Virus record (IMG/VR): IMGVR_UViG_3300030329_000087
Location: 1,810 to 37,973 of that record
DNA length: 36,164 bases
Direction: 5' to 3' (one strand)
Source: a virus
A program made the position numbers and the translations under genes. Numbering within the stretch: the stretch's first letter is position 1; each line of letters starts with the position of its first letter. The notes under the pieces are model-generated. The model saw nothing but the letters and a program-made list of their open reading frames with translations, did no database searches and was not told where the DNA came from. Below, one piece after another: positions 2,904-30,952 of this stretch.

Positions 2904-3349
2904 GCTAAGTCACCATGTGCTACAGTATAATTATACTTTCCATCTACTAATGCTGAACCACCATAACAAACTACATCATATGCACCAGTTTCAAAACCAC
3001 CAGAATAATATTCAAATTTTGCTACACAAGTAACATTAGCTGGGAAACTTTCTCCTGCATAAGCATTTCCAGTATAGTTTACTGCGTAACTCGTATTAGC
3101 AAAGTTATTGGTCATATTTACTAAAAATCTTCCAGTAGCTTCGTCTGTAAGGCTACCAACATTAAATGAATCAACAGCAGTTGTACTTGCATAATTAAAA
3201 TACACCCATTGTTTTGACAAACTTTGCACCATATTCTGTGTAACACTTGTGCCACCATCTGATTCATATACAGAATTATTTTTAACTCTTATATCTACTC
3301 CTAATGAACCACCAGTTTTTCTAATTGTATCTGTTAGTAATGTACTCAT
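2900..3349 (-). CDS. Tail-fibre-type repeat-family protein (A), ends GDLA
   Basis: 149 residues: MSTLLTDTIRKTGG head, SVTQNMVQSLSKQWVYFNY at about residues 35-53, VDSFNVGSLTDEATGRF, FANTSYAV and the ending AHGDLA. It is the complete member most like the truncated gene at 1-380, sharing VTQN-x-VQSL-x-K-x-W. It is the first of three consecutive family members that follow the MPYIGK gene at 3346-3795. A tail-fibre role is inferred. Confidence 0.82.
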   Translation of the reverse strand: MSTLLTDTIRKTGGSLGVDIRVKNNSVYESDGGTSVTQNMVQSLSKQWVYFNYASTTAVDSFNVGSLTDEATGRFLVNMTNNFANTSYAVNYTGNAYAGESFPANVTCVAKFEYYSGGFETGAYDVVCYGGSALVDGKYNYTVAHGDLA

Positions 3350-3795
3350 ATAGTCACCAATGTTCCACCTGATTCTATTGTAAGTGTCACTCCACTATTG
3401 ATAGTAAAAGGTCCTGTCACGTTAGCATTTTCTGTAGCAAGTATTGTTATGTTCGCTGTTAATGATTGAGCATTTGTTCTAAACAATCCACCACCTTTAA
3501 AGTTACCTTTGTTCTCAGCAGCAGGTGTTATTGTAGATGCTTGAGGAGCTAGATAGTTTACAAATATATTTCCTGTTCCACTTGAAGGTGCAGCAGTAAA
3601 TGTTAAAGTTGTACCATCAGGTATTGTATAAGCTGCAGTATCTTGTACCACGCCATCTACAGATACAAGAACGTCTTGTACAGAACTTACGGCTGTTGTT
3701 AATGTAAATGTTGTATCACTTCCGTCACCATTAAATCTTTGTACGGCTGTTGTACTTTGATACGCTGTTGCTACATCTTTACCTATGTATGGCAT
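3346..3795 (-). CDS. MPYIGK-type tail-fibre/adhesin module, copy 1
   Basis: 149 residues. After MPYIGKDVATAYQ it has the FNGDGSDTTFTLTTAV / VLVSVDGVVQD / YTIPDGTTLTFTAAPSSGT pattern of a beta-sandwich fibre module. The C-terminal segment ANVTGPFTINSGVTLTIESG is seen at the ends of many marine phage adhesin-like proteins. It is paralogous to 377-835. Position and architecture support a virion tail or fibre role. Confidence 0.82.
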   Translation of the reverse strand: MPYIGKDVATAYQSTTAVQRFNGDGSDTTFTLTTAVSSVQDVLVSVDGVVQDTAAYTIPDGTTLTFTAAPSSGTGNIFVNYLAPQASTITPAAENKGNFKGGGLFRTNAQSLTANITILATENANVTGPFTINSGVTLTIESGGTLVTI

Positions 3796-4142
3796 TAGGT
3801 TATCTCCATGTAAGATAAGGCAACATCGGTAGCACCTGTTGCAGTTACTGATATACTGTCTGTAGCTTCTAAAACAACTTTGTTACCAGCCAAAAGCTCT
3901 AATGATGATCCTGCTGGAATGGGTGCATTAGTAATAAGTTCTACTGGTTGGTTAACTTCATCATTATCGTTTGTTCTATTACCTGTGTCAGATGTTAATG
4001 TAACTGTGGCAGTAACTTGACTTGTTGTTGTATTTCCTAATACCAAACCTAGTATTATCGTTGTTGTGCTACTAGCTACTGTGTAGATTACATCTGCACT
4101 TGTTACTCCTGCTTTGCTTGATAATTTAAATGTATTTGCCAT
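3795..4142 (-). CDS. Small beta-rich virion protein
   Basis: 115 residues, almost entirely Thr/Ser/Val-rich beta pattern (MANTFKLSSKAGVTSADVIY..). It includes LGNTTTSQVTATVTL and PIPAGSSLELLAGNKVVLE, as in small marine phage structural proteins of immunoglobulin-like or jelly-roll appearance. It lies between the large fibre gene and the MPYIGK gene, with a one-base overlap downstream. A structural role is likely; the precise function is unknown. Confidence 0.75.
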   Translation of the reverse strand: MANTFKLSSKAGVTSADVIYTVASSTTTIILGLVLGNTTTSQVTATVTLTSDTGNRTNDNDEVNQPVELITNAPIPAGSSLELLAGNKVVLEATDSISVTATGATDVALSYMEIT

Positions 4143-10299: not shown

Positions 10300-10332
10300 T
10301 AAAAAAAAAGGCGACTTGTAAAGTCGCCTTTA
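10300..10332 (-). terminator. Rho-independent terminator after the major capsid gene
   Basis: On the minus strand an 8-bp perfect G+C-rich stem (GGCGACTT / AAGTCGCC, 3-nt loop), extended by A-T pairs, is followed by nine T residues. It lies directly downstream of the capsid stop at 10350. Partial termination here would raise capsid mRNA relative to the tail genes further left. Confidence 0.85.
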
Positions 10333-20364: not shown

Positions 20365-20588
20365 TAGAAATGTCCTTTAAACTTTGATTTAGTATTAGCC
20401 ACAACACCACCTTTATTGAAAATTGATATAGGAAGAAAATCTATTATACCAAATTTTCTTGATGCTTTTGGTTTTCTTGATCTTCTTTTTCTTTTAAAAG
20501 GTGCTACATTTATAAAACCACCTTTAACAGAATCTAATTCTTTTTTAAAAGGTGGAGTTAAATCTATTTTAAATCCTTTAGTACCCAT
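20364..20588 (-). CDS. Small basic protein between TerL and portal, KGG tail
   Basis: 74 residues: MGTKGFKIDLTPPFKKEL, a strongly basic centre (FKRKRRSRKPKASRKFG), then FNKGGVVANTKSKFKGHF. It is flanked tightly by terminase and portal genes. The basic centre suggests nucleic-acid binding; the KGG tail is shared with 17109-17333. Function unknown. Confidence 0.75.
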   Translation of the reverse strand: MGTKGFKIDLTPPFKKELDSVKGGFINVAPFKRKRRSRKPKASRKFGIIDFLPISIFNKGGVVANTKSKFKGHF

Positions 20589-22066
20589 TAGTAATACTCC
20601 CTTTTCTCTCGGTAATATTCATCTTCTTCATAATCATTTGGAGTGATGATAAACCCTCCTTGACGAAAACGCAAGATGGCTTGTGTCATACTATCAGCTA
20701 AATCGTCATTTTCTCCATTTGGAAACGCTGCACATTCTTCTACAACCTCATCTGCAAAACGCTTCTCAGGTCGCCAAACCATGCCACTTTCAAAGACAGG
20801 AGCACAAGCGTTCATACGTGTGAACTTGTCTGCACCTCTACTTGGTGTAAAAGGTGTCACGGGAATACCCATACGTCTTAACTCATGTGTCAATGGCGTA
20901 CCTGTTGCTTTTTGTTCTATCAATATCATATCAGGATCGTATTCTTTATACAATCTGTAAGCATTATCTTTTAATTCTGGGAAATCCCAGCGTCCTCTTT
21001 CTGCATCAAGAAGTATGATCGCTTCTCCTTCTCCCTCAACAGGTTCAAAGACACCCCAAGTTGTAATTGCAGAAAAATCAGCTCTTTCTGATTTACTGTA
21101 TGCAGTATCATAAGATTGTATGATATAACTTACGTGTGGTGGATCATCGTTCTCCCAGATGTTCCACCACTCCCTTTTAATAATCGCACCTTCTTCAGCA
21201 GTGGGATTCTGCAAATACTGTGCGTTCCATTTAGCTACAGGGATTGACGATTTAACTGCTTCTAGCTCTTCTTTCTTCCAGTATTCAGACCAAAGCACAT
21301 TGCCTGTGTCAGGAAATATGGCAGGAAACTCCACAACTTCCCATTGATCTGCACCACCCTCTGCCTGTTTCTTTAATACTTTGGCAGTCAGGTCACGAAC
21401 ACTCCATCTTGTCATAACAATGATAATGGCTCCACCAGGCTGAAGTCTTTGTCTAGGACCTGAGGTATACCATTCGTATATGTTATCCAACATAGTCGGA
21501 TTAAGTGCATCTTGTTCAGAAACAGGGTCATCAATGATAAGAAGATCAGCACCACGTCCTGCTAACGCACCACCGACACCAACAGCGTAGTATTCACCAC
21601 CCTTGTTTGTAGACCAACGACCAGATGCTTTCGCATCAGATGCTAACGACACATCAGGAAATATGTCAGAGAACTCTGGTGAATCAATTAAGTTCTTAAC
21701 CTTACGACCAAAGCCTACAGCCAACTCAGATGTGTGTGTCGCCTGTATAATCTTACTTGTCGGCTTACGACCCATCAACCAAGCAGGAAACAAATAACTT
21801 GCAAACTCAGATTTGGTGTGTCGTGGTGGCATATTGACAATCAAACGATTTGATTTGCCATCTGCTACATTCTGTAACTTCTCTGCATATATCTTATGAT
21901 GACGACCCTCAATAAATGAAGACCAGATATGTTTTACAAAATCAATAAAGTTAGTTTGAAAAGCATCTCTCTTCTCTAACTCATTTAATCTAGTGACTAT
22001 CTCACCAAGTTTGGACATCTCATCATCAGTGAGATACTCAGTCGGTATGTTGAAATTACTCTTCAT
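20588..22066 (-). CDS. terL: Terminase large subunit
   Basis: 492 residues from ATG at 22066 (a TTG 15 bases upstream is less likely). Walker A-like NMPPRHTKSE at 78-87, with Thr in place of the usual Gly before the Lys; Walker B LLIIDDP at 175-181; coupling-motif region MTRWSVRD at 218-225. Nuclease acids: D320 (SYDTAYSK), E384 (ILIEQKATG) and D454/D455 (GENDDLADSM). It packages and cuts the phage DNA at the portal. The start overlaps the upstream gene by 11 bp. Confidence 0.95.
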   Translation of the reverse strand: MKSNFNIPTEYLTDDEMSKLGEIVTRLNELEKRDAFQTNFIDFVKHIWSSFIEGRHHKIYAEKLQNVADGKSNRLIVNMPPRHTKSEFASYLFPAWLMGRKPTSKIIQATHTSELAVGFGRKVKNLIDSPEFSDIFPDVSLASDAKASGRWSTNKGGEYYAVGVGGALAGRGADLLIIDDPVSEQDALNPTMLDNIYEWYTSGPRQRLQPGGAIIIVMTRWSVRDLTAKVLKKQAEGGADQWEVVEFPAIFPDTGNVLWSEYWKKEELEAVKSSIPVAKWNAQYLQNPTAEEGAIIKREWWNIWENDDPPHVSYIIQSYDTAYSKSERADFSAITTWGVFEPVEGEGEAIILLDAERGRWDFPELKDNAYRLYKEYDPDMILIEQKATGTPLTHELRRMGIPVTPFTPSRGADKFTRMNACAPVFESGMVWRPEKRFADEVVEECAAFPNGENDDLADSMTQAILRFRQGGFIITPNDYEEDEYYREKREYY

Positions 22067-22730
22067 TATACAAGTTATCAAAAATCCTGTTTACATCTAA
22101 TGTGTAATCTAAATCAGATTTTGAATAATGTATATGCTGAGATGGTCTAAAATCTGGTGCACCCTCACCTGTTTCAAACCATGCAGGGTGTGTCACACGC
22201 ACTCTGTTGTTAGGCAAGGCTACAAGATTACCTGTCCACTCTCCAGCGTCTAGCAAATACATCACATGACTCTGCTTATGCTGTGCAGGGTCATCTGCTA
22301 TCTCGCTTTCTGTATAATCAACTGTAAATAAATATTTAGCTGGATACATCTCGCCACCTATCTTTGCAAGCCACGGGCAAGGAGTGGCTCTATCCAAGGT
22401 GTACACAGCATGATAATGCGATGAGCAATCCCAGGGTTGAGCATCATGCGTTTCCATTGGATTAGACCACTCCTCAACTGGTATGTCTGCCATTAAACCT
22501 GTTATTGGCATCCTAGCCCACATTGCTCCCCCATGCACATTAGGACTTTTTGTTCCATCTGTTTCACAGCCTGTAAATATAACCTGAAAACTCAAACAAC
22601 GATTAGGCATAGTCGTTACGGCTATTGCCATTGCGTGTAAGAACTCTCCGTGATATTTGTCGTGATTACAGGTGTACTCCCTCCTCACCCAACACTTGAA
22701 GTGAGGTATATTACTCTGTAAATACGGCAT
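22056..22730 (-). CDS. Conserved protein of unknown function upstream of TerL
   Basis: 224 residues. Striking fixed motifs: CWVRREYTCNHDKYHGEF, HAMAIAVTTMPNRCLSFQV, NVHGGAMWARMPITGL, QPWDCSSHYHAV, YPAKYLFTVDYTESEIADDP and HPAWFETGEGAPDFRPSQ. These strings are nearly invariant in related marine phages as far as I remember, which suggests strong functional constraint. Rich in His, Cys and Trp; a metal site is possible. It precedes terL without a gap. No function is known to me. Confidence 0.85.
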   Translation of the reverse strand: MPYLQSNIPHFKCWVRREYTCNHDKYHGEFLHAMAIAVTTMPNRCLSFQVIFTGCETDGTKSPNVHGGAMWARMPITGLMADIPVEEWSNPMETHDAQPWDCSSHYHAVYTLDRATPCPWLAKIGGEMYPAKYLFTVDYTESEIADDPAQHKQSHVMYLLDAGEWTGNLVALPNNRVRVTHPAWFETGEGAPDFRPSQHIHYSKSDLDYTLDVNRIFDNLYNEE

Positions 22731-26121: not shown

Positions 26122-27393
26122 TTATGATCGGGTTTCAATCAAATGTTCATTCCATTCCCTAAGTTCATGAGACATACCATTCAAAACATCATATTCTAAA
26201 TTGTCCAGTAATTGCACTGTTGGCATTTCCTCATTGTTGGAATTTACAGTTTCCACCTTTTCAAATCTATGTAAGATTTGATATCTGCAATATATTTGTC
26301 CATCACCATAAACATGATTATTGGCTTGTTGCGTATGAGTGATTATTGCACCTTGTCCATAAGCACGTCTTAACTCAGAAACTCTTGATCTAATATTTTG
26401 ATCTGTTGCACCAGTGACATTCATTATTTCTTCAATTGTTGCACCTTGTCCATTGTTGTGGTTTCTACACATATCATAAACTCTTGCAACAAATGAACGT
26501 CCATTATTGTGTTGTTGTGGTGTTTCAACTTCAATTGTTCGGGTTTCTGTTTGAACTGGAACAACAAGAGTTGTCCAATCACATCTTTGCATTGATTGAA
26601 CATATATCCATTTAATGAACTTTACCCAGTTTAAAAGTTTTAAACCTGACAACGTGCTTGCACCTTGTCTAAATTCAATCGTAAATTTACTGGTAAAAGG
26701 TTTGGTATTGATTGCACGTTGTTTACCTAGATCACTCTCTGTAAATTGTTCAACTCTTGTTGCATTGACAAAACTATTAGAATTTAAGATTGAATTGATT
26801 GGATACGACCACGCATGAAAACGTCTACTTTCTGGCAACGTTGAAGAAATATAATTTTGATTGATTGCATATGATCTAATAACGTCTTTAATCATTTCAA
26901 ATGGTAGCATTTTTGTAAGTTGATTATTTGGTGAGATATATGCACCAGAATTGAAACTGGATAAATCACTGGATAAATGATTTTTAAAATGAGCAATTTG
27001 ATTATTGTTAAATTCACTAGGTGAGTTTAATGCTAACCTTGTTCCAACGTGGATATGTCCACCACAATTTTTACGTATTACACAATTGCACCTTTCAAGC
27101 ACGTTTAAAACTGGTTTAATATACGTTTCAATTGATATTTCATTTATAATCAAAGGTGGAAATATAATCTCGGCATCAACGTTTGCACTTCCATCAGTTG
27201 TCACAATTACATAGTTCAAACCTTGTTCAAGTAATTTATCTCTTATGATACTAGGTGAGATATAATTTCCACGTTGGCTACCAACCTCACATTCATAACC
27301 AACAATCATTTTATTAAGATCATATGATAGTGATGTTTCTCTTGCTAATGCTTGTGGTGTAAGAGCTGTTGTGTTTTGTAATGTATTTGTCAT
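26122..27393 (-). CDS. Amidoligase with C-terminal winged-helix-like domain
   Basis: 423 residues. Amidoligase (COOH-NH2 ligase, glutamine synthetase-like fold) signatures: VGYECEVGSQRG (31-42), TTDGSANVDAEIIFPP (65-80), CGGHIHVG (110-117), IEFRQGASTL with NWVKFIKWI (239-263). The acidic and His residues there correspond to the usual metal/ATP site. Residues about 300-372 (VARVYDMCRNHNNGQGATIEE, IRSRVSELRRAYGQGAII) look like a winged-helix. Amidoligases join amines to carboxyl groups; substrates in phages are predicted, not known. A GGCT-like protein is encoded at 30467-30952. Ribosome-binding site AAAGG precedes the ATG. A palindrome site lies in-frame at 26532-26543. Confidence 0.85.
   Translation of the reverse strand: MTNTLQNTTALTPQALARETSLSYDLNKMIVGYECEVGSQRGNYISPSIIRDKLLEQGLNYVIVTTDGSANVDAEIIFPPLIINEISIETYIKPVLNVLERCNCVIRKNCGGHIHVGTRLALNSPSEFNNNQIAHFKNHLSSDLSSFNSGAYISPNNQLTKMLPFEMIKDVIRSYAINQNYISSTLPESRRFHAWSYPINSILNSNSFVNATRVEQFTESDLGKQRAINTKPFTSKFTIEFRQGASTLSGLKLLNWVKFIKWIYVQSMQRCDWTTLVVPVQTETRTIEVETPQQHNNGRSFVARVYDMCRNHNNGQGATIEEIMNVTGATDQNIRSRVSELRRAYGQGAIITHTQQANNHVYGDGQIYCRYQILHRFEKVETVNSNNEEMPTVQLLDNLEYDVLNGMSHELREWNEHLIETRS
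26532..26543. repeat. CCCGAA-N6-TTCGGG family partial site in the amidoligase gene
   Basis: CAATTGTTCGGG matches the centre and right arm; it encodes part of ETRTIEVE. Confidence 0.55.
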
Positions 27394-27458: not shown

Positions 27459-27613
27459 CCCCCATATATTAAAAAAAAGTATATTTCATGTATTTTTAGT
27501 GCATTTTTATAGTTTGCAGCTTATTTTTGTGACATATATGCAACACAATTGTTCTGTATTTTTCATGTAAATTTATTTATTTTTGTTCCTGTTTCGTTCC
27601 TGTTTTATGAGGT

Positions 27614-27633
27614 TTAAAATTTATAAATTTTAA
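27614..27633. repeat. 20-bp perfect AT palindrome
   Basis: TTAAAATTTATAAATTTTAA is self-complementary over all 20 bases, in a very AT-rich stretch. It could be an easily melted or protein-bound site; no function shown. Confidence 0.6.
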
Positions 27634-27660
27634 TTTTGCTATCACATGATATTATTCTTC

Positions 27661-27720
27661 AGAATCCGAACCCCGAACCCGACCCGATACCGACCCGACC
27701 CGATCCCCGAATCCCGAAAC
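27661..27720. repeat. Degenerate tandem CCCGA array
   Basis: Seven or so CCCGA units in about 55 bases, each followed by A, C or T (for example CCCGACCCGATACCGACCCG). No coding frame is evident. The unit is the same as the arm of the dispersed palindrome. Confidence 0.7.
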
Positions 27721-27742
27721 TACGGAATCCAGAGATCCGAAG

Positions 27743-27760
27743 ACCGAACAATTGTTCGGG
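27743..27760. repeat. CCCGAA-N6-TTCGGG palindrome
   Basis: ACCGAACAATTGTTCGGG: 16 of 18 bases form a perfect palindrome with the CAATTG centre. Intergenic. Confidence 0.75.
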
Positions 27761-27789
27761 ATGTGTAGATCCAGCAGGGCAGAGTGCAA

Positions 27790-27822
27790 AAAAAAAACCC
27801 CCAGCCTGTGAAGGCTGGAGGC
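27790..27822 (-). terminator. Terminator after the 27845-28123 gene
   Basis: On the minus strand CCTCCAGCCT pairs with AGGCTGGGGG (10 bp, one G-T wobble, 4-nt loop), followed by at least nine T. It lies about 25 bp past the stop of the gene. Confidence 0.88.
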
Positions 27823-27826
27823 TTTC

Positions 27827-27841
27827 CCCGAACAATTTATC
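27827..27841. repeat. CCCGAA palindrome half-site with variant centre
   Basis: CCCGAACAATTTATC lies just downstream of the stop codon; the same 15 bases recur at 28699-28713. Confidence 0.55.
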
Positions 27842-27844
27842 GTG

Positions 27845-28123
27845 TTATATCCAGTGATGTTTTAACTTGTAACCATCTCCAAAGAGAGCATGGCTTAAAT
27901 CATAGATTACTTTGAATCCCATGTCCATTCCACAACCACGCACAACAATTGAATCTAAATATTTATTAGGTTTATATCCTAAAGTTTTTTCAATTTTGTA
28001 ATTGATCCAACATGGCTTGTTGTCTCTGATTACATAAAATGAAATGTGTCTTGTCATTCCACTTTTTGAAACGTGTCTTGTAAAACAATACACAATGTCG
28101 TCTTTTTTTATCTCTACTGTCAT
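27845..28123 (-). CDS. Small conserved protein, RHVSKSGMTR / GCGMDMGF type
   Basis: 92 residues. Conserved motifs: YCFTRHVSKSGMTRHISFYV (12-31) and VVRGCGMDMGFKVIYDLSHA (60-79), then LFGDGYKLKHHW. I recognise the two motifs from phage and bacterial proteins, but do not know a function. Its own promoter and terminator make it a single-gene unit. Ribosome-binding site AAAGG. Confidence 0.8.
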   Translation of the reverse strand: MTVEIKKDDIVYCFTRHVSKSGMTRHISFYVIRDNKPCWINYKIEKTLGYKPNKYLDSIVVRGCGMDMGFKVIYDLSHALFGDGYKLKHHWI

Positions 28124-28162
28124 TTTTCTAACCTTTCTAGTTTAATATTAATTTATATTCCC

Positions 28163-28191
28163 ATGTTATCCCATAATATATTATAAGTCAA
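28163..28191 (-). promoter_or_regulatory. Sigma70-type promoter of the 27845-28123 gene
   Basis: TTGACT (28186-28191), 17-bp spacer, TAACAT (28163-28168) on the minus strand, 40-68 bp upstream of the ATG. Confidence 0.7.
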
Positions 28192-28261
28192 TACCCTTTT
28201 TTATTTTTTTTTAACTTTTTTTTGCTGGTCTTGCTGGAGCATCTGCTGGTTCATCTGCTGG

Positions 28262-28272
28262 AATTGTTCGGG
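28262..28272. repeat. CCCGAA-N6-TTCGGG family half-site
   Basis: AATTGTTCGGG, right arm only. Confidence 0.5.
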
Positions 28273-28294
28273 TGTTGTGCTGACCTGAAGCACA

Positions 28295-28312
28295 TACGAA
28301 CAATTGTTCGGG
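28295..28312. repeat. CCCGAA-N6-TTCGGG palindrome
   Basis: TACGAACAATTGTTCGGG: 14-bp perfect core with CAATTG centre. Confidence 0.72.
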
Positions 28313-28330
28313 ATGAGCTTCAGGGACGGA

Positions 28331-28385
28331 AGCCGGGCTGTTCCAGGCGAACAATTGTTCGGAAGCCGGGCTTCCAGCCGGGCTG
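28331..28385. repeat. Nested GC-rich palindromes around a palindrome-family site
   Basis: AGCCGGGCT (28331-28339), GGAAGCCGGGCTTCC (28361-28375) and CAGCCGGGCTG (28375-28385) are separate inverted repeats sharing the GCCGGGC core. They bracket the CGAACAATTGTTCG site at 28346-28363. The local G+C is far above the surrounding DNA. Confidence 0.65.
28346..28363. repeat. CCCGAA-N6-TTCGGG palindrome
   Basis: GGCGAACAATTGTTCGGA: 14-bp perfect core. Confidence 0.72.
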
Positions 28386-28396
28386 TACCTTTCTCT

Positions 28397-28414
28397 TCAG
28401 AACAATTGTTCGGG
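28397..28414. repeat. CCCGAA-N6-TTCGGG palindrome
   Basis: TCAGAACAATTGTTCGGG: GAACAATTGTTC core with a full right arm, about 20 bp before the TerS terminator T tract. Confidence 0.68.
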
Positions 28415-28432
28415 TTTTTAGCCTGGCAGGTG

Positions 28433-28483
28433 AGAAAAAAAGACCCCGACCCGAAAAGTAAGCGAGGAAAAACGGGTCAGGGC
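28433..28483 (-). terminator. Terminator downstream of the small terminase gene
   Basis: On the minus strand CCCTGACCCG pairs with CGGGTCGGGG (10 bp, one wobble), with a 19-nt loop, followed by TCTTTTTTT. It lies about 270 bp after the terS stop; the stem is built from CCCGA-type sequence. Confidence 0.8.
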
Positions 28484-28586
28484 GTGGGAGTTCTGGAGGA
28501 AATTAGCCACATTTAGTGTTATTTGTAACCCGAACCACTAGATTTGTCAACCAGCAGTCCCGATCCCGAAGCCCGAAGCCCGATAA

Positions 28587-28604
28587 CCCGAACAATTATT
28601 CGGG
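28587..28604. repeat. CCCGAA-N6-TTCGGG palindrome, complete arms
   Basis: CCCGAACAATTATTCGGG: both 6-base arms perfect. Preceded by several CCCGA units (28560-28586). Confidence 0.78.
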
Positions 28605-28644
28605 ATGGCACGGCTCGAGATGAGAGATGAGAGATGAGGCTGTC

Positions 28645-28662
28645 TCCGAACAATTCTTCGGT
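28645..28662. repeat. CCCGAA-N6-TTCGGG palindrome
   Basis: TCCGAACAATTCTTCGGT: 5-base arms with variant centre. Confidence 0.7.
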
Positions 28663-28698
28663 TTTCTGTCCCCGATCCAGCCCAATATTTCTGGGAAA

Positions 28699-28713
28699 CC
28701 CGAACAATTTATC
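28699..28713. repeat. CCCGAA palindrome half-site with variant centre
   Basis: CCCGAACAATTTATC, identical to 27827-27841. Confidence 0.55.
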
Positions 28714-28751
28714 ACACCGAACCCGATCCGTCAGGATTTTGCTCAACGCCT

Positions 28752-29303
28752 CTACCCCGAAACGGGGTTTTCTGGTAAATTGTCCGAATCTTTGCTATTA
28801 TCGACTATCTCAACCCGAACATCTTTATCTGGCGTTACGTTACGCATACGACCTTCAGCTAATTTTTTAAATTCTTCAAGTTTTTCAACGATTTGCTCCC
28901 TAGTAAGCCCGTTCATATCTTCGTGCATAACGTGTGATTTGTTGACCAGTAGTCCTGTCGCCTTTAATCGCAACTCTTCAGCCCGAATAGCCTCCCCGAT
29001 TTTGCCACTCTGCCAAGCATCATCACGCATCTTTTTTAAATCCCGAACAGATTTCTCCACAGTGACCCCAAACTTTGCGTTAGCCTCCATACGCATCTCT
29101 TGGTATCTTTCCTGTACCACAGGGTTACGCAACAGCCTTACAGCATCAACTGATGGGTTGCTATACCCAGCATCTCGTGCAGACGCAGTTTGCGTCATGT
29201 CCTTATGCATAAAGTTATCTAAAAATTTTTGTTGTTTTTCAGTGAGCCTTTTCCAACCTGCTTTGGTTTGCTCCTTTGTCAGCGTTTGACCTACCTGCAC
29301 CAT
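28752..29303 (-). CDS. terS: Terminase small subunit
   Basis: 183 residues from ATG at 29303. A GGAG ribosome-binding site 11 bases upstream supports this; a GTG at 29339 would coincide with the -10 box. The DNA-binding-like N-terminal domain reads LTEKQQKFLDNFMHKDM, TASARDAGYSNPSVDA, LLRNPVVQERYQEM (about 19-70), typical of TerS (helix-turn-helix with AGY). A helical middle follows (SVRDLKKMRDDAWQSGKIGE). It recognises the packaging site and guides TerL. It lies 6.7 kb upstream of terL, an unusual separation. A palindrome-family partial site lies between ribosome-binding site and start codon. Confidence 0.88.
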   Translation of the reverse strand: MVQVGQTLTKEQTKAGWKRLTEKQQKFLDNFMHKDMTQTASARDAGYSNPSVDAVRLLRNPVVQERYQEMRMEANAKFGVTVEKSVRDLKKMRDDAWQSGKIGEAIRAEELRLKATGLLVNKSHVMHEDMNGLTREQIVEKLEEFKKLAEGRMRNVTPDKDVRVEIVDNSKDSDNLPENPVSG

Positions 29304-29337: not shown

Positions 29338-29365
29338 ACTATACAAAATGCTACAGAAATATCAA
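29338..29365 (-). promoter_or_regulatory. Candidate promoter for terS
   Basis: TTGATA (29360-29365), 16-bp spacer, TATAGT (29338-29343) on the minus strand, about 35 bp upstream of the ATG. Confidence 0.6.
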
Positions 29366-29373
29366 GTGTATTG

Positions 29374-29618
29374 GGGTGGGGGTGGTGGGTTACTTACCAC
29401 CACCCTATACCCCCTTATAGGGGGGAAGTGATGGTAAGTTGGTAAGTTGCAATAAAATCAATAACTTACAACCCGAAACGTAGTTACCGACTTAACTCGT
29501 AACCTATGTAAGTAAATCTCTGTAACGTAGGCTACATAACAAATATTAACTTACCTACAATTTTACTTACCAAGTAAGTTGGTAACTTGGTAAGTAAATT
29601 AGTTATTTTGGTAAGTTA
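29374..29618. repeat. GTAAGTT repeat block with hairpins upstream of terS
   Basis: At least eight copies of GTAAGTT/AACTTAC-type units in both orientations: 29390-29398, tandem 29433-29440 and 29441-29448, 29463-29469, 29507-29516, 29546-29555 and 29610-29618. A 37-base structure at 29562-29598 has arms TTTACTTACC / GGTAAGTAAA and an inner AAGTT-GGT-AACTT. G-rich hairpins lie at 29381-29400 and 29409-29425 (CCCCC-TTATA-GGGGG). Only its right end (from 29603) is coding. Iteron-like; could be the packaging site read by TerS or a replication origin. Confidence 0.75.
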
Positions 29619-29752
29619 TCAAGTATGGTTTTGAAAGCATCATTAATTTCTTTTTTGCTTTCTTCATTCTCTTTGCAATCCTCACCATAAAATTCATCAC
29701 AGGCAGATTCAAGTTCAGTTCTGATTATTTCAATAGCAATATCTAATTTCAT
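29603..29752 (-). CDS. Small acidic protein (49 aa)
   Basis: ATG at 29752 overlaps the TGA of the upstream gene (ATGA); TAA at 29603. The peptide begins MKLDIAIEIIRTELESACDE and ends FKTILDNLPK. Acidic and helical. Coupling to the upstream gene supports it. The last codons form part of the GTAAGTT repeat block. Function unknown. Confidence 0.68.
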   Translation of the reverse strand: MKLDIAIEIIRTELESACDEFYGEDCKENEESKKEINDAFKTILDNLPK

Positions 29753-30466: not shown

Positions 30467-30952
30467 TTAGTTAGTGTTGTTTTCATGTAATAAACGAAAT
30501 GATTTGAACTTACGTTTTGGTTTTGGTTCAGACCAATTATGTTTATTACTCGTATAATGCGACCAACCTAGAGCATCATAGAGGTGGCTAGGATTTAAGC
30601 CAAAGTTTGTATAACCCTCTAGTATCGTATGGAAGTAAGAAGAAGATGGTGGCAATATGTCTTTATTGTTATTCATCTTATAAGTCATAATGCCATTGAC
30701 TTTAACTTTACCATAGAGAGTTGGATAACCCTCATAAAAATCTAAAGCCTTTTCACAATCTTCAGTAATCTCCCAAACACCTACAGGCAACAAGTCCTCT
30801 TTATCATAGCTTGGCACAATATCGGCAACATGGCGAAATACCAATTTCCAATTTGGTATATACATAGCACCCAAATGTTTTGCATTAGGGCATCTAGTCG
30901 CCATGCTACTGTGGTTTAAGTTAGAACCATAAGCAAAATATAATTTTGTCAT
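30467..30952 (-). CDS. Gamma-glutamylcyclotransferase-like (AIG2/GGCT) protein
   Basis: 161 residues. LYFAYGSNLNHSSM (4-17) is the family glycine-rich substrate loop; PNWKLVFRH follows; LPVGVWEITEDCEKALDFYEGYP (55-77) holds the catalytic Glu position (E74). GGCT-fold enzymes cyclise gamma-glutamyl amides, releasing 5-oxoproline, and act on small peptides. In comparative work such proteins occur with amidoligases, here encoded at 26122-27393. The C-terminal ~45 residues (LYDALGWSHYTSNKH.., KPKRKFKSF) are outside the core. Product and substrate are not known. Confidence 0.88.
   Translation of the reverse strand: MTKLYFAYGSNLNHSSMATRCPNAKHLGAMYIPNWKLVFRHVADIVPSYDKEDLLPVGVWEITEDCEKALDFYEGYPTLYGKVKVNGIMTYKMNNNKDILPPSSSYFHTILEGYTNFGLNPSHLYDALGWSHYTSNKHNWSEPKPKRKFKSFRLLHENNTN

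What the first reader, a model, noticed from the sequence alone, without database searches (positions are those of the whole stretch)
29374..29618. GTAAGTT repeat block directly upstream of terS
At least eight short repeats in both orientations, two tandem 8-mers, a 37-base double inverted repeat and two G/C hairpins lie in about 245 bp immediately upstream of the terS promoter. Packaging (pac/cos) sites bound by TerS often lie in or next to terS, and iterons also mark replication origins. I can see the repeats; the function is inferred.
Basis: partly seen in the sequence, partly recalled or inferred. Interest (0 to 1): 0.65.

Follow-up and report, generated by a model that had tools for sequence, protein, structure and literature searches.

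The report
Probable phage DNA-packaging start site
Just in front of the gene for the DNA-packaging protein TerS, this family of uncultured marine phages carries one strongly conserved cluster of short repeats, DNA-bending sites and hairpins, most likely the place where genome packaging into the virus head starts; the kind of element is known, but this particular layout appears undescribed.

Summary
The repeats are real. Window 29374-29624 holds 13 hits to GTAAGTT/GGTAAGT; no other 236-bp stretch of the window has more than 2. The block is not a local oddity. It lies within about 750 bp upstream of terS in all 69 terS loci examined in IMG/VR. Of 100 contigs found by block DNA alone, 93 have terS directly downstream and the other 7 end within 115 bp. 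It is the only such cluster in three essentially complete relatives (57-59 kb, one-stranded, circular maps). Upstream neighbour genes vary; the block stays with terS. Repeats and hairpin 2 are 86-92% identical among 16 representatives, against 50% at terS third codon positions and 44-49% in flanking DNA. TerS is of the SF6/SPP1 family. In SPP1, pac overlaps the late promoters and start of the terS gene. A related lineage (HTVC023P) has an unrelated repeat (CTAGGAAA) in the same place. Best reading: a pac (TerS-loading) site, IHF-bent, overlapping the late/terS promoter. Late-gene control region and replication origin remain rivals; no binding or virion-end data exist.

The parts
29374..29624 (-). 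Whole conserved repeat block (proposed pac / TerS-loading site overlapping the terS/late promoter); listed below in + coordinates, sense strand is minus
29380..29405 (-). Hairpin 2 (GGGTGGTGG / CCACCACCC) whose loop carries GGTAAGTAACC; compensatory changes in relatives
29409..29425 (-). Hairpin 1, CCCCC-TATA-GGGGG type palindrome
29432..29447 (.). Tandem 8-mers TGGTAAGT x2, the most conserved repeat pair (ACTTACCAACTTACC in gene sense)
29456..29468 (+). IHF-consensus site AATCAATAACTTA (WATCAANNNNTTR), conserved register in relatives; a second site 78 bp away in many relatives
29483..29515 (.). Central diverged repeats (GTTACC, GTAACC, GTAAGTAA)
29549..29624 (.). Distal repeat array (ACTTACC, ACTTACC, GTAAGTT, GGTAACT, GGTAAGT, GGTAAGT)
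29562..29598 (.). 37-bp imperfect palindrome inside the distal array
29338..29365 (-). Candidate sigma-70-like promoter TTGATA-16-TATAGT between block and terS
   Evidence: count not above shuffles
28752..29303 (-). terS, SF6/SPP1-type small terminase (N-terminal HTH)
20588..22081 (-). terL, large terminase, about 7 kb downstream

Best explanation
The block is the packaging initiation (pac-type) site of this phage family. An SF6/SPP1-type TerS ring loads on the GGTAAGT repeats, helped by host IHF (or a similar bender) that folds the DNA at one or two sites 78 bp apart, and positions TerL to make the first headful cut nearby, perhaps at the G/C hairpins. As in SPP1, the site overlaps the promoter of terS and the late operon, so TerS binding may also control that promoter. 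Shown: the repeats, their uniqueness, conservation and terS linkage, the IHF-consensus register, the hairpin compensation, the TerS family, and genome maps that close at different points. Inferred: TerS binding, IHF binding, cleavage, headful packaging.
For: Linkage to terS in both directions: 69/69 terS loci have the cluster within about 750 bp upstream; 93/93 evaluable loci found by block DNA pattern alone have terS directly downstream. It is the only cluster of this motif in three complete circular-map genomes. Nearest upstream genes fall into 12 families while the block stays with terS, even where a gene is inserted between block and terS. Selection: 86-92% identity in the repeats and hairpin 2 against 50% at terS third codon positions and 44-49% in flanks. 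IHF-consensus sites: 77 in 58 distinct blocks at fixed offsets, with variable N positions, against 9-13 per 47-59 kb genome. TerS matches SF6 TerS structures. In SPP1, pac overlaps the PL promoters and the start of gene 1 (PMC6316719). Lambda cosB has TerS repeats around an IHF site (PMC4669245). In the HTVC023P lineage a homologous TerS (30% identity) follows a different repeat array, CTAGGAAA, in the same place in 45 of 52 loci. Complete relatives close at different points relative to terS, so no fixed end was found.
Against: No virion-end or binding data. The isolated SF6 DNA-binding domain showed no specificity for pac repeats (PMC4737164). The HTVC027P lineage has no comparable array upstream of its terS. 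The IHF and array features would equally suit an origin or an activator-dependent promoter. Host and presence of IHF are unknown. Assembled contig circularity does not prove headful packaging.
Confidence: 0.6

Rival explanations
1. Late-operon control region: a phage or host activator or repressor binds the repeat array with IHF and switches on the promoter of terS and the single co-directional late gene set; hairpin 2 ends early transcription.
For: Block sits at the boundary between the replication/early region and the late genes, all on one strand. A candidate promoter lies just downstream. In one subgroup hairpin 2 is followed by a run of eight T. In some relatives an extra gene lies between block and terS, so the block heads the operon.
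Against: Ten to thirteen sites are many for one promoter. The T-run is missing in most subgroups, including the window. No adjacent regulator gene is conserved. The sigma-70 count is not above shuffles.
Confidence: 0.2
2. Replication origin: repeats are iterons for a phage initiator, with IHF assisting melting.
For: Iteron-like array, IHF sites and inverted repeats are classic origin parts. [quoted passage not shown]
Against: Linked to terS, not to replication genes. GC skew is monotonic around complete genomes, with no inflection. No DnaA boxes at intergenic gaps and no marked AT-rich element: block GC is 0.36, like the genome. A separate GGCAGTT-rich non-coding region lies directly before the helicase gene in the window's subgroup.
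Confidence: 0.12
3. cos site with fixed cohesive ends (lambda-like), the block being cosB.
For: TerS repeats with an IHF site next to terS resemble lambda cosB. Contig ends are frequent near the hairpins.
Against: Large contigs run through the block and complete ones close at other points. Contig ends near the block are not at one nucleotide, and a similar pile-up lies at the palindrome-rich zone downstream of terS, so assembly breaks explain them better.
Confidence: 0.06

Closest known systems
Bacillus phage SPP1/SF6 pac site
   Same: Same TerS family by profile and DNA-binding-domain fold; repeats at and before the terS start; overlaps the late promoters of terS
   Different: Repeat sequence unrelated; here the whole array lies 5' of the terS coding region; no IHF-consensus sites or double G/C hairpin are described for SPP1 pac in the passages read; terL is about 7 kb away here
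Lambda cosB (R3-I1-R2-R1)
   Same: TerS-site repeats in both orientations with an IHF site between them, directly upstream of terS
   Different: TerS of lambda is of another kind; no fixed cohesive end found here; more repeats and up to two IHF-consensus sites
Repeat array upstream of terS in HTVC023P-type pelagiphages
   Same: Same position, homologous TerS, lineage-restricted short repeats
   Different: Motif is CTAGGAAA, not GGTAAGT; no strict IHF consensus seen in the examples read; found here, no published description located

Membership tests
pac site (headful, SPP1-like) | TerS of matching family encoded next to the site | tested here: met
   Terminase_2 E 1.9e-8; profile hit to SF6 TerS 3zqp E 1.9e-5; fold match to 4zc3, TMt 0.85 over the DNA-binding domain, but whole-model pLDDT only 59.6 and E-value 0.41
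pac site (headful, SPP1-like) | Repeats in or beside terS and its promoter | tested here: met
pac site (headful, SPP1-like) | Unique site per genome | tested here: met
   one cluster in each of three complete genomes
pac site (headful, SPP1-like) | Circularly permuted, terminally redundant virion DNA | tested here: inconclusive
   assemblies close at different points; virion DNA not available
pac site (headful, SPP1-like) | TerS binding and TerL cut at the site | not testable with these tools
   needs protein and reads
lambda-type cos | TerS repeats with an intervening IHF site | tested here: met
   consensus match only
lambda-type cos | Fixed genome end beside the repeats | tested here: not met
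   contigs run through; no single end position
iteron replication origin | Initiator gene or replication module adjacent | tested here: not met
   adjacent gene is terS in all evaluable loci; upstream genes vary
iteron replication origin | Skew inflection or AT-rich melting element | tested here: not met
   a unidirectional origin would not need an inflection

The most novel reading that the evidence does not exclude
A packaging site of a new layout: two repeat modules, each with its own IHF bend exactly 78 bp apart, plus a paired G/C hairpin that marks the first cut, serving at the same time as the switch for all late genes, with its recognition word replaced wholesale (GGTAAGT to CTAGGAAA) between related marine phage lineages.
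Probability: 0.2. Interest if true: 0.65.

Novelty: new variant of a known kind. Interest (0 to 1): 0.5.

Why it matters
Packaging sites are known in detail for few phages, and how TerS picks its own genome is debated: the SF6 domain shows little sequence preference, while HK97 TerS reads a defined 15-bp site (PMC4737164; PMC11331095). This family gives dozens of natural variants of one candidate site beside its own TerS, and a related lineage with a different repeat word at the same place, so recognition can be tested by swapping sites and proteins. The phages are related to the abundant HTVC023P-type pelagiphages, for which no packaging site was found in the papers read.

Tried and rejected
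Rfam search of the region: nothing near gathering score. Genome-contig scan with ACTTACCAACTTACC: mostly chance 15-mers; three loci with dense arrays (L101, L145, L162) were not followed up. Contig-end clustering as evidence for packaging cuts: rejected, because ends also pile up at another hairpin-rich zone and are not at one base. Simple terminator for hairpin 2: T-run only in one subgroup. HTVC027P, 023Pt_psg01 and DSL-LC04 terS regions: no matching array.

Full report
Observation. The window is part of a 42.8-kb uncultured virus record coding almost wholly on the minus strand. The block 29374-29624 carries 13 GTAAGTT/GGTAAGT hits in 236 bp, against at most 2 in any other stretch of that size in the window. 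The tandem 8-mers, the 37-bp palindrome and both G/C hairpins are present as described. terS probably starts at ATG 29303, the start kept in relatives.

Conservation and linkage. A terS search of IMG/VR gave 80 loci. In all 69 with enough upstream sequence to scan, the motif cluster lies within about 750 bp upstream of terS; in some of these the contig begins inside the block, so only part of it is seen. The reverse search, with two DNA patterns from the block only, gave 100 loci; 93 have terS downstream and the other 7 end within 115 bp. In three relatives whose contig ends overlap (58,963, 58,051 and 56,727 bp after joining) it is the only cluster of this motif. The nearest gene upstream belongs to 12 different families, and in one subgroup a gene of about 150 aa lies between block and terS, yet block and terS stay together. 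Among 16 representatives the repeats and hairpin 2 are 86-92% identical, terS third codon positions 50%, and DNA on either side 44-49%: strong selection on non-coding DNA.

Anatomy. In gene sense the order is: a repeat array with a palindrome, a first IHF-consensus site (many relatives), diverged repeats, a second IHF-consensus site, tandem ACTTACCA, hairpin 1 (CCCCC-TATA-GGGGG), and hairpin 2 with GGTAAGTAACC in its loop. Strict WATCAANNNNTTR occurs 77 times in 58 distinct blocks, mostly at offsets 58/59 and 136/137, 78 bp apart, and 9-13 times per 47-59 kb genome. At the first site the unconstrained positions vary (TGAC, CAAC, AACA, CAAG, TGTT, CATC) while the consensus positions stay. Part of the consensus (CTTA) overlaps the repeat word, and the blocks are related by descent, so the counts are not independent; the window itself has one strict site. 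Hairpin 2 shows two pairs with changes on both sides among five alleles, 100% paired against 37-63% for most shifted registers (+3, with only 2 pairs left, also gave 100%); the alleles were chosen and framed by hand and are few.

TerS. The protein is Terminase_2. A profile of 14 relatives finds SF6 TerS in PDB (E 1.9e-5), and the predicted DNA-binding domain matches SF6 4zc3 (TMt 0.85, probability 1.00, but Foldseek E 0.41; whole-model pLDDT 59.6). SPP1, the relative of SF6, has a pac that overlaps its late promoters and the start of gene 1 (PMC6316719). Lambda cosB combines TerS repeats with an IHF site (PMC4669245). Against a simple repeat code, the SF6 domain alone binds pac DNA without clear sequence preference (PMC4737164).

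Sister lineages. The nearest isolates by TerL and portal are pelagiphages HTVC027P and HTVC023P, with the records 023Pt_psg01 and DSL-LC04. HTVC023P TerS is homologous to that of the window (30%). Its upstream region carries a different repeat, CTAGGAAA, at 4-5 copies per locus, with at least 3 copies in 45 of 52 distinct loci, and nearly absent from adjacent DNA. HTVC027P-type loci, where terS lies on the opposite strand to terL, have none. A TerS-linked site whose word changes with the TerS lineage is what recognition would predict, but this is a correlation over two lineages.

Alternatives. An origin is less likely: no skew inflection, no link to replication genes, ordinary GC, and a distinct G/T-rich region with 9-10 GGCAGTT copies before the helicase gene in the window's own subgroup, though this region is absent in the other two complete relatives. 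A late-gene control region is the strongest rival, since the block heads the single late unit; in SPP1 both roles share one place, so the two are not exclusive. A fixed cos end is disfavoured by contigs that run through and close elsewhere.

Verdict. Observation confirmed; packaging reading favoured at about 0.6; a new variant of a known kind. Function rests on linkage, conservation and analogy, with no binding or virion-end data.

Noticed in passing
window 27541-28715, with single copies at 10329, 13143, 26029, 29305, 30012, 31550, 33619, 34514, 35951: A second conserved repeat family, the palindrome CCGAACAATTGTTCGG, dense downstream of terS in a GC-richer zone with CCCGA repeats, and scattered elsewhere, partly inside genes; present in nearly all relatives. 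It resembles a dimeric regulator operator; function unknown.
   Followed up: partly
L084 about 3250-4000 (outside the window, same contig); complete relative G004, 47.7-48.5 kb after terS: A non-coding region of about 750 bp, G/T-rich on the coding strand, with 9-10 copies of GGCAGTT directly before the helicase gene; candidate replication origin or recombination element; absent in G017 and G018.
   Followed up: partly
L220 11672-11780 (HTVC023P) and L327-L406: CTAGGAAA repeat array directly upstream of terS in HTVC023P-type pelagiphages, apparently the counterpart of the block.
   Followed up: partly
window 26122-27393 and 30467-30952: Amidoligase-like and gamma-glutamyl cyclotransferase-like genes in the same phage.
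   Followed up: no
L217 7547-7840 (DSL-LC04): GC-rich GGCCCACGG repeats between terL and terS in a distant relative.
   Followed up: no
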